Source: an uncultured Acidobacteriota bacterium
GTDB taxonomy: Bacteria; Acidobacteriota; Terriglobia; Bryobacterales; Bryobacteraceae
Length of the DNA: 64,000 bases
Assembly (NCBI GenBank): GCA_902826605.1
Contig: CADEFM010000001.1
Coordinates: 310,001-374,000 of the forward strand
Direction of reading: 5' to 3'
How positions within the stretch are numbered: the stretch's first letter is position 1; each line of letters opens with the position of its first letter. Made by a program: the position numbers and the translations under genes. The notes below the pieces were generated by a model. It was given only the letters and a program-made list of their open reading frames with translations, was not told the DNA's origin and ran no database searches. Below, piece by piece: positions 38,989 to 40,858 of this stretch.

Positions 38989-39035
38989 TTTGGTAGGCGC
39001 GGCAGGGATCGAACCTGCGACCCTCAGCTTAGAAG
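38989..39035. repeat. Direct repeat of tRNA-Arg 3' end (attL-like)
   Basis: These 47 bp are identical to 40812-40858, the part of tRNA-Arg(TCT) from the anticodon loop to the encoded CCA plus 2 further bases. After this point the sequences diverge. The copy carries no 5' half of a tRNA and is not a gene. It marks the far end of an integrated element whose other end is the intact tRNA gene. Confidence 0.9.
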
Positions 39036-39534
39036 AAGCTCGTCAGGACTGCGAACGCTTACACTTTATTGTTAGTATCGGCCAGGAAATAGGCGCTCCA
39101 AGCGGTCTAGCGTGCTCACGCTTGCTGACGATTTCTAAGGTGAGTCGCTACAATTTCCACTACAGTCCGGTGGCGGCATCGTCGCCGCGTCTCGCGCGCG
39201 CGATACTGTCTGGCGGCGGGAGCGTCATGAGGGTAGTTGAGGGTCTCGGAACTCCCGCCCGGCGAAACTAAGTGGATTGTGACAGGCGGAAGCAGACCTC
39301 CCCGGCAATCTGTGACCGAGAACTGAAGGTCCCTCTCGGAGGTATCGTCGCTCTCTTCTCTTGTGCCTTGACGTCTATCTCTGTTGTCAGTCCGAGAATG
39401 GCGATGGACAAGATACCTACGCTGAACGCTAGCCGATCATCGGCAATCTCTTTTGAGTGCATCTGAAAAGTCCCCGTAATGTCACTAAAAGGGATCTGCC
39501 CGAGCCGACCTTGCCGTTCAACATAACAGACTTT
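39036..39534. other. Gene-poor left part of the island remnant
   Basis: About 500 bp without a convincing gene. A minus-strand frame at 39268-39462 is listed separately as a doubtful small gene. The plus-strand frame from 38990 to 39271 is an artefact of translating the tRNA fragment. No repeats or integrase pieces were seen here. Confidence 0.5.
39268..39462 (-). CDS. Doubtful small secreted protein, 64 residues
   Basis: The frame starts MHSKEIADDR and has a hydrophobic stretch FSVGILSIAILGLTTEID that could be a signal peptide or anchor. A GGGGA sequence lies about 8 bases before the ATG. It is in the same direction as the secreted protein gene at 39535-40380, 72 bp downstream of it. No family is recognised and the short length makes chance coding possible. 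Confidence 0.3.
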   Translation of the reverse strand: MHSKEIADDRLAFSVGILSIAILGLTTEIDVKAQEKRATIPPRGTFSSRSQIAGEVCFRLSQST

Positions 39535-40380
39535 CTATTTCACCGACTTTGTCAGGTCAATGTCGATGCTTGTGCTTCGGTCGACTCGGATATCACGCGA
39601 ATCCAGAAGGTGGTCGAGACCAGGGACTATGAACTTTCCCGTGGAGTTTTTGAGCCATGTGATTAGCCCATAGCCCCCCTTATGGCTAAGCTTGAAGCGG
39701 AAGCGTCCTTGAGAATCCACCGCCACCTCCTCCCCGTAGCCGCCGTAATCTGCCATCAGTTGCAACAGCAAATGCCTATAGTCTCCCTGATAGTTGAGCA
39801 CGCGACCGCTCAACAATAAGTTGAGCTTTGTTGTCTCGCACACTGAGGATTTCGGACCGAGCGGTTCGCTCAAGTACTCGACGTACTTTACGCGGACACC
39901 ATCCAACTTCAGTGCGATGCCCTGTGAATCGTACACAACGTACTCTTTATCTCCGGTTGCGGATTCGAAGAGTGGCACGCCGTCGGCATCCGCAAGGCAG
40001 TAGTCGGAGGCGTATTTCGCAATGCGATACCCTTTACCGAAAAGTGTTTGTGCTTCCGCAAACGTCAAACTGGATTGGGAAAGGGTGATCCATTGGATGA
40101 CGCCTGTCTCATCTGCGACCATCTCGATCCGCCCTTTGGCAGGTCCAATATCCTGATAGTAGATCCAATCGGAGCCCTGGTGGTCTCTGAAGGTCGTCTC
40201 CGGCTCGCCTAGTTTCTGGCGCGCTTCACTTACTGTGGAATGCCCCAGCGTTAAGCCCTTGAACGTCGCCGGCTTGAACGTCGATCTTGCGGTTGTTTGT
40301 GCCGATGCAAGGGGTAGAGTCCCGATCCCAACAACCACACAAGCGACAATCAAGGATTGATAAATCATGAAGGTCTGCAT
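39535..40380 (-). CDS. Unknown secreted protein of the island
   Basis: The 281-residue product has a signal peptide ending ASAQ at about residue 28. The segment FKGLTLGHSTVSEARQKLGEP looks like the BamE/SmpA-type small alpha-beta fold seen in many lipoproteins and phage-borne proteins. The C-terminal half is beta-rich (GRFRFKLSHKGGYGLITWLK). No lipobox is present. Base composition is visibly less GC-rich than in neighbours, consistent with transfer along with the integrase. Function is unknown. Confidence 0.65.
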   Translation of the reverse strand: MQTFMIYQSLIVACVVVGIGTLPLASAQTTARSTFKPATFKGLTLGHSTVSEARQKLGEPETTFRDHQGSDWIYYQDIGPAKGRIEMVADETGVIQWITLSQSSLTFAEAQTLFGKGYRIAKYASDYCLADADGVPLFESATGDKEYVVYDSQGIALKLDGVRVKYVEYLSEPLGPKSSVCETTKLNLLLSGRVLNYQGDYRHLLLQLMADYGGYGEEVAVDSQGRFRFKLSHKGGYGLITWLKNSTGKFIVPGLDHLLDSRDIRVDRSTSIDIDLTKSVK

Positions 40381-40429
40381 CGGCTCACACGCTTGGAATC
40401 ATAACATTACTTTGCGTTGGATTTGCTGA

Positions 40430-40792
40430 GTCAATTGTGTACGTCTTGCTTACATCGACTGGAGGGGCGCCCATGCCCGCCGATCCTACGAGCCCGACAA
40501 CAACATGAAGAAGGCGTGGGGCACACTGCGAAAAAAGGCAAACGTCGATTGCCGAATCCACGATTTGCGGCAAAGCGTCGCCACAAAGCTCGCTGAAACT
40601 GGCACTCTTGAGTCTACGATGCTAGCCCTGCTCGGCCATATGAGCCGGGCCATGCTGGAACGCTACTCTCACATCAGGCTAGCCGCGAAACGTGTTGCTG
40701 TGGAGGCACTGACCACTCGACCCAATGAACAGGATTCCCGCCCGACTGCTACAAATTCCACTACAGTTACCGAATCTGAACTTGTCCAGTGA
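40430..40792 (+). pseudogene. Truncated tyrosine recombinase/integrase (C-terminal part)
   Basis: Only the end of the catalytic domain is present. It shows HDLRQSVATKLAETGTLEST (first Arg of the box II HxxR motif), then LLGHMSRAMLERYSHI with the conserved His and the nucleophile Tyr. The core Arg of box I and the whole N-terminal core-binding domain are missing. The frame is open only from a TGA at 40427-40429, and an internal ATG at 40505 is the first Met. It runs toward the tRNA gene, ending 22 bp from it, in the position expected of the integrase of the element. Confidence 0.85.
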
Positions 40793-40811
40793 GCCGTAAC
40801 TTACTGAGAAA

Positions 40812-40858
40812 TTTGGTAGGCGCGGCAGGGATCGAACCTGCGACCCTCAGCTTAGAAG
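40812..40858. repeat. Direct repeat, tRNA copy (attR-like)
   Basis: These 47 bases are identical to 38989-39035 and cover the 3' half of the tRNA-Arg(TCT) gene from its anticodon loop, the encoded CCA and two bases beyond it. This copy has the full 5' half of the tRNA next to it, so the gene was kept functional after integration. Confidence 0.9.

What the first reader, a model, noticed from the sequence alone, without database searches (positions are those of the whole stretch)
38989..40858. Mini-island at tRNA-Arg(TCT) with 47-bp direct repeats
The 3' half of the tRNA is duplicated exactly 1823 bp away, with a truncated tyrosine integrase adjacent and an unknown lower-GC secreted protein inside. 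This is a rare clear case of an almost fully eroded integrative element where both ends can be seen.
Basis: partly seen in the sequence, partly recalled or inferred. Interest (0 to 1): 0.55.

Follow-up and report, generated by a model that had tools for sequence, protein, structure and literature searches.

The report
Eroded mobile element in tRNA gene
A 1.8-kb scrap of a mobile element sits in an arginine tRNA gene of a bacterium; both of its recombination ends survive while its integrase gene is broken, which makes it a clear but ordinary example of a known kind.

Summary
An exact 47-bp repeat (38989-39035, 40812-40858) copies the 3' half of tRNA-Arg(TCT), with the 3' end of a tyrosine integrase gene beside the tRNA. 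Of the 29 best other loci of this integrase family, 25 lie beside a tRNA gene. Sixteen larger relatives, 3.9-15.2 kb, duplicate the same tRNA region and carry a direct repeat 92-158 bp inside the far core and 43-60 bp inside the tRNA core; the window has one at 111 and 46 bp. Both ends (core plus probable arm-type sites) therefore survive while most of the interior is gone. Refinements: the cargo gene is not a family gene, has two tandem paralogues elsewhere in this genome, and shares its low GC with them. No empty site was found. The far end abuts a rearrangement breakpoint: Memo and a MutS-like gene, neighbours in 18 of 21 same-genus loci, are apart here, and the MutS side keeps a decayed 5' half of tRNA-Arg(TCT).

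The parts
38927..38973 (+). Remnant of the Memo/MutS-like intergenic stretch and first bases of the MutS-like gene; left flank of the element
   Evidence: 48-column alignment at 79% to G000:C2 around the start of the intact MutS-like gene; 0 of 1000 shuffles reach the score
38989..39035 (.). Far attachment core: displaced copy of the tRNA-Arg(TCT) 3' half (positions 33-77 plus 2 bp)
   Evidence: exact 47-bp repeat; same region duplicated in 16 larger relatives
39147..39166 (+). Probable arm-type repeat near the far core (111 bp inside it)
   Evidence: direct repeat with 40748-40767, 19 of 20; placing matches larger relatives
39167..39534 (.). Unassigned stretch between the far repeat and the cargo gene
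   Evidence: no match to 1239 ORFs of 16 relatives; ORF 39268-39462 has no Pfam or PHROGs hit
39535..40380 (-). Cargo gene, 281 aa, probably exported, function unknown; two tandem paralogues on contig C14
   Evidence: Foldseek of a low-confidence model points to a YjgB/DUF4309-like fold
40430..40792 (+). Integrase pseudogene: stop-to-stop frame with only the C-terminal end (HDLR, GH, Y kept; first catalytic Arg and everything before it lost); similarity starts near 40487, and the frame probably changes near 40503
   Evidence: frame change read by eye from the frames
40748..40767 (+). Probable arm-type repeat near the tRNA core (46 bp inside it), within the 3' end of the integrase fragment
40812..40858 (.). 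tRNA-proximal attachment core (functional 3' half of the tRNA)
40814..40890 (-). tRNA-Arg(TCT), intact; integration target
   Evidence: ARAGORN

Best explanation
This is the remnant of a phage- or satellite-like integrative element. Its tyrosine integrase recombined the element's attP with the anticodon-loop region of tRNA-Arg(TCT). Integration restored the tRNA with the element's own copy of the 3' half and pushed the original 3' half to 38989-39035. Shown: both cores, the inner direct repeats placed as in larger relatives, and an integrase reduced to about its last 100 residues. Inferred: that the repeats bind the integrase N-terminal domain; that one or a few large deletions, rather than slow decay, removed the interior (the cores are still identical over 47 bp); and that the 281-aa gene is a host-type gene retained or captured in the scar. 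The element should not move by itself, because its integrase lacks the N-terminal part and a catalytic arginine. Its ends could still be recognised in trans.
For: Exact 47-bp core. Integrase relatives in 97 of 257 genomes of the order (this genome included) at E <= 1e-12; in 25 of the 29 best loci from other genomes a tRNA lies just beyond the integrase end. 16 of 55 comparison stretches show a 43-48-bp copy of the tRNA 3' end downstream, exact in 15 of 16; of the other 39, 9 have no tRNA in the stretch. Inner repeats at matching offsets in these 16, 14 of them scoring above all their internal controls; window score 17 against a maximum of 9 in 27 controls. The window's far repeat matches the near repeats of L188 and L209 (score 17 each) and L191 (14), all in tRNA-Arg genes, at 46-48 bp from the core. 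L188 is a 9.1-kb element at the same tRNA with the same boundary, positions 33-77. The 11 relatives' proteins scanned, from five elements, include primase/helicases, a terminase small subunit, a major head protein, a tape-measure protein and an excisionase-like HTH.
Against: No empty site was found. The cargo gene matches no ORF of the 16 relatives and has paralogues on C14 with no tRNA in the 14 kb read there, so its link to the element is unproven. In L203 the repeat is only 11 bp and below its control maximum of 12, and L227 ties with its control maximum of 23. In L213 the integrase lies at the other end. In the reverse comparison, relatives' far repeats against the window's near repeat, L209 scores 14 and L191 11 at the right place, L188 is not among the six listed, and L208 scores 15 at the wrong place. 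The left flank is a rearrangement breakpoint, so it may not be the tRNA's original neighbour.
Confidence: 0.93

Rival explanations
1. The tRNA fragment was left by a chromosomal rearrangement or tRNA duplication, and the integrase scrap is a coincidental neighbour.
For: The far core abuts a real breakpoint: Memo and the MutS-like gene, neighbours in 18 of 21 same-genus loci, are apart here, and the MutS side carries a decayed tRNA-Arg(TCT) 5' half.
Against: It does not explain the inner repeats on both sides at the offsets of the larger relatives, nor an integrase type that usually sits at this place. The two genes are also apart in three other same-genus loci (L023, L028, L030) with no tRNA called there, so their separation by itself does not call for a tRNA.
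Confidence: 0.04
2. Two successive elements used the same tRNA, and what is seen is the fused scar of both: the far end from one, the integrase end from the other.
For: Tandem accretion at tRNA sites is described for IMEs and CIMEs (PMC5704250, passages); L188 shows a second, 5'-half copy on its other side.
Against: The window's two inner repeats are 19 of 20 identical and its cores are identical, as expected for one element.
Confidence: 0.12
3. A still mobile, non-autonomous element (cargo plus both ends) moved by integrases of related elements.
For: Both cores and both inner repeats are present; the cargo ORF is open.
Against: No second copy of the whole unit in the genome, no other integrase of this family there (G000 shows only itself at E <= 1e-12), and the cargo is not in the 16 relatives.
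Confidence: 0.1

Closest known systems
tRNA-targeted genomic islands as defined by Islander (PMC4383910, passages read)
   Same: tRNA gene plus displaced 3' fragment in the right order and orientation; anticodon sub-site; integrase sequence inside
   Different: 1.8 kb, below Islander's 2-kb limit, and the integrase is only a fragment
CIME, cis-mobilizable element (PMC5704250, passages read)
   Same: lost the integration gene, keeps both att ends
   Different: CIMEs derive from ICEs or IMEs; the relatives here carry phage-like genes, and no transfer gene was recognised in the 11 proteins scanned from five of them
Mycobacteriophage attP sites with paired arm-type repeats (cluster K, PMC3203893, passages read)
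   Same: short repeats on both sides of the core, arm sequence varying between related integrases; phage Pixie has a 47-bp core at a tRNA-Lys gene
   Different: other hosts and integrases; in CrimD the pairs on the two sides are inverted to each other, here they are direct; the sites there are predicted too
Element L188 (G179:C799) in the same bacterial order
   Same: same tRNA-Arg(TCT), same duplicated positions 33-77, similar inner repeat, integrase 59% identical over the shared end
   Different: 9.1 kb with a full 371-aa integrase and a DUF3987 primase/helicase

Membership tests
tRNA-site integrase elements of this bacterial order (defined here from 16 relatives) | Integrase C-terminal region of this family at the tRNA end | tested here: met
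   in 15 of 16 relatives the integrase points at the tRNA, L213 is reversed
tRNA-site integrase elements of this bacterial order (defined here from 16 relatives) | 43-48-bp duplication from anticodon loop to tRNA 3' end | tested here: met
tRNA-site integrase elements of this bacterial order (defined here from 16 relatives) | Direct repeat 92-158 and 43-60 bp inside the two cores | tested here: met
   111 and 46 bp; score 17, maximum of 27 internal controls 9
tRNA-site integrase elements of this bacterial order (defined here from 16 relatives) | Complete integrase and replication or phage genes | tested here: not met
   only the last part of the integrase; no match of 1239 ORFs from 16 relatives outside 40454-40812; hence filed as a remnant, not an intact member
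tRNA-site integrase elements of this bacterial order (defined here from 16 relatives) | Repeats are bound by the integrase | not testable with these tools
   needs a binding assay
tRNA genomic island (Islander) | tRNA plus correctly placed and oriented fragment | tested here: met
tRNA genomic island (Islander) | Length 2-200 kb | tested here: not met
   1823 bp start to start
CIME | attL and attR kept, integration gene lost | tested here: met
CIME | Derived from an ICE or IME and mobilised in cis | not testable with these tools
   relatives look phage-like; mobilisation needs an experiment

The most novel reading that the evidence does not exclude
The scar is a working minimal substrate: two complete att ends around one gene that an incoming L188-type integrase can excise and move. 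It would also mark a tRNA-Arg(TCT) site where recombination at the anticodon loop has both taken in elements and rearranged the chromosome, since the two sides of the broken Memo/MutS pair carry the 3' half and the 5' half of that tRNA.
Probability: 0.12. Interest if true: 0.5.

Novelty: new member of a known kind. Interest (0 to 1): 0.3.

Why it matters
The element itself is ordinary, but the comparison gives a usable rule for a common element family of this bacterial order: a core of 43-48 bp at the tRNA 3' half plus a direct repeat at set distances inside both cores. That rule can find both ends of an eroded element even when the integrase is nearly gone, and this one, at 1.8 kb, would fall under a 2-kb length filter such as Islander's. 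The breakpoint next to it makes tRNA-linked chromosome rearrangement in this genus testable.

Tried and rejected
Rejected or unresolved: (1) Low GC as a sign of foreign cargo: rejected, the C14 paralogues are as low. (2) Finding the cargo in named genomes: the genome-contig scan with it found no relative; 3 of 61 whole genomes have one, this genome included. (3) Fold of the cargo: the model is poor (mean pLDDT 57.6); the best Foldseek hit is YjgB/DUF4309 (E 4.5e-4), a lead only. (4) Empty site: not found. (5) A decayed 3' half to the left of the C2 tRNA fragment: no support, 893 of 1000 shuffles score as high. (6) G004's copy has the tRNA duplication but no inner repeat (best score 8, no controls run for it); its copy is 42 of 43 identical to G004's own tRNA, so it is not clearly older. 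(7) The MutS-start remnant matches G006 more weakly than C2 (1 of 1000 shuffles reaches the score). (8) The 12-bp period of the repeats: 12 is the best shift on 28 of 34 sides, window included, but the matching fractions are modest (7 of 16 and 9 of 16 for the window) and no shuffles were run. (9) Five paper searches (listings) surfaced no description of this element family; that is not proof of absence.

Rows dropped before counts: L158 (the window itself) from the integrase loci; W and L112 from the 57 sequences; L016 (the window itself) and 8 other-genus loci, none with the MutS-like gene beside Memo, from the 21 same-genus Memo loci. Same-genus G019 had only a partial Memo match and no locus.

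Full report
The observation. Window 38989-39035 and 40812-40858 are identical over 47 bp, 1823 bp apart start to start. A 40-bp part of the repeat has no third match in the window with up to 3 mismatches. The second copy is the 3' part, positions 33-77, of tRNA-Arg(TCT) at 40814-40890 on the minus strand, plus 2 bp. Between the copies lie a 281-aa ORF (39535-40380, minus) and, beside the tRNA, the last part of a tyrosine integrase gene (40505-40792; PF00589 positions 111-168 of 172).

The integrase. The stop-to-stop frame 40430-40789 finds relatives in 97 of 257 genomes of the same order, this one included, at E <= 1e-12. Of the 29 best loci from other genomes, 25 have a tRNA gene just beyond the integrase 3' end: mostly Lys, also Arg (TCT, TCG, CCG), Thr, Pro and Met; L175, L181, L184 and L185 have none in the stretch. 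Of the frames found in these loci, those not cut short are 372-439 residues stop to stop. The window keeps the HDLR, GH and Y motifs and the C-terminal tail, but not the first catalytic arginine (in the relatives' MRxGE stretch; the catalytic roles are recalled) or anything before it. By eye from the frames printed, similarity continues a little upstream in another frame (GAPMPADPTSPTTT), so the fragment is probably also frame-shifted near 40503; no search tested this separately. The genome has eight other PF00589 match rows but no other member of this family at the threshold.

The ends. One search examined 57 sequences: the window, L112, and 55 stretches around other integrase relatives. In 16 of the 55 a 43-48-bp copy of the tRNA 3' end lies downstream of the tRNA, 3.9-15.2 kb away, exact in 15 of 16 (L212 has one mismatch). 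Of the other 39, 9 have no tRNA in the stretch; I did not sort out the rest. In each of the 16, in the window and in L112 I looked for the best ungapped direct repeat between the first and last 300 bp inside the cores. Fourteen of 16 score above all their internal controls; L203 (11 bp) does not and L227 ties. The repeats start 92-158 bp inside the far core and end 43-60 bp inside the tRNA core; the window's lie at 111 and 46 (score 17; 27 controls, maximum 9). Most look like two units about 12 bp apart. Far against near repeats of different elements score 9.2 on average over 272 pairs, maximum 23. The window's far repeat scores 17 against the near repeats of L188 (tRNA-Arg TCT) and L209 (Arg CCG) and 14 against L191 (Arg CCG), at 46-48 bp from the core. 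The reverse comparison is weaker: L209 14, L191 11, L188 not among the six listed, and an off-position match of 15 to L208. This layout resembles integrase arm-type sites: pairs of 11-bp repeats flanking a core are described for mycobacteriophages (PMC3203893, passages), and binding of the integrase N-terminal domain to arm-type sites is stated in PMC2951348 (passages). Binding was not tested here. In 15 of the 16 relatives the integrase points at the tRNA; L213 is reversed.

What the relatives are. I scanned ten proteins per library, 11 in all, from L188, L191, L200, L202 and L204. Pfam and PHROGs find DUF3987, VapE and D5-type primase/helicases, a terminase small subunit, a major head protein, a tape-measure protein and an excisionase-like HTH. 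These look like small prophages or phage satellites; the other 11 relatives were not scanned. None of 1239 ORFs (60 residues or more) from the 16 relatives matches window 38900-40900 outside 40454-40812, the integrase end. The cargo is therefore not a common gene of the family. In this genome it has two tandem paralogues on contig C14, 68 and 64% identical, with no tRNA in that 14-kb stretch. Two of the other 60 genomes have a relative. Its GC of 52.8% is matched by the paralogues (51.6, 52.0%). A poor structure model resembles YjgB/DUF4309. Its function stays open; an exported small-domain protein is my best guess.

Age. The two cores are identical although the far one is under no known constraint. 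That argues for a fairly recent integration followed by a large deletion rather than slow decay; with 47 sites the argument is weak. In G004, same genus, tRNA-Arg(TCT) has a 3' copy 1.29 kb away, 42 of 43 identical to its own tRNA, with no inner repeat found: an independent case at the same gene.

The flank. Memo lies next to a MutS-like gene in 18 of 21 same-genus loci; in L023, L028 and L030 it does not, and in none of 8 other-genus loci does it. In this genome the MutS-like gene is on another contig (C2:200152). Between Memo and the far core, 38927-38973 matches the start of that gene (79% of 48 columns; 0 of 1000 shuffles). About 1 kb before the MutS-like gene on C2 lies a decayed 5' half of tRNA-Arg(TCT), C2:199127-199162 (0 of 1000 shuffles). 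A pattern drawn from it and the tRNA occurs twice in the genome, there and in the intact tRNA. So the two sides of the broken pair carry the two halves of one tRNA type, divided at the anticodon loop. Since the MutS remnant is more diverged than the cores, I think the break is older than the element. Integrase-driven inversions between tRNA genes are reported in Thermococcus (PMC5495485, passages). The mechanism here is not shown.

Known or new. Islander lists 3919 candidate islands, 3760 with a 3' and 159 with a 5' fragment, and rejects candidates under 2 kb (PMC4383910, passages). Elements that lost integration genes but keep both att ends are called CIMEs (PMC5704250, passages). Decayed prophages in Acidobacteria are reported (PMC5900883, passages). 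This is a new member of a known kind.

Noticed in passing
L192+L193 (G176:C1), L221 (G108:C3), L188 positions 18339-18377: A second class duplicates the 5' half of tRNA-Arg(TCT) (positions 1-39 to 1-42) on the other side of the gene, about 2.6, 8.1 and 13.5 kb away; in G176 and L221 the integrase lies on that side.
   Followed up: partly
G000:C2:199127-199162 (L255 about 7127-7163): Decayed tRNA-Arg(TCT) 5' half about 1 kb upstream of the relocated MutS-like gene; the only other match of its pattern in the genome is the intact tRNA.
   Followed up: partly
L112:7546-8913 (G004:C123): Another short tRNA-Arg(TCT) scar, 1.29 kb, with open frames that look to me like a decayed beta-helix protein; no inner repeat found.
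   Followed up: partly
L008:314-3275 (G000:C14): Two tandem paralogues of the cargo gene beside an ORF that I read by eye as a Sel1-repeat protein, near a contig end.
   Followed up: partly
L261 (contig CALQCC020000044.1, 31229 bp, same length as G014:C44): Public record titled Bordetella parapertussis although it appears to be the contig of a genome of the window's genus; probably mislabelled.
   Followed up: no
L111 (G015:C484), L056 (G009:C129), L116 (G008:C150): Three fragmented assemblies have a contig end at or within about 105 bp of tRNA-Arg(TCT), as could happen if att repeats break the assembly there.
   Followed up: no
window 38990-39271, plus strand: Open frame reading backwards through the tRNA copy (GAAGIEPATLSLE); a likely spurious gene call.
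   Followed up: no
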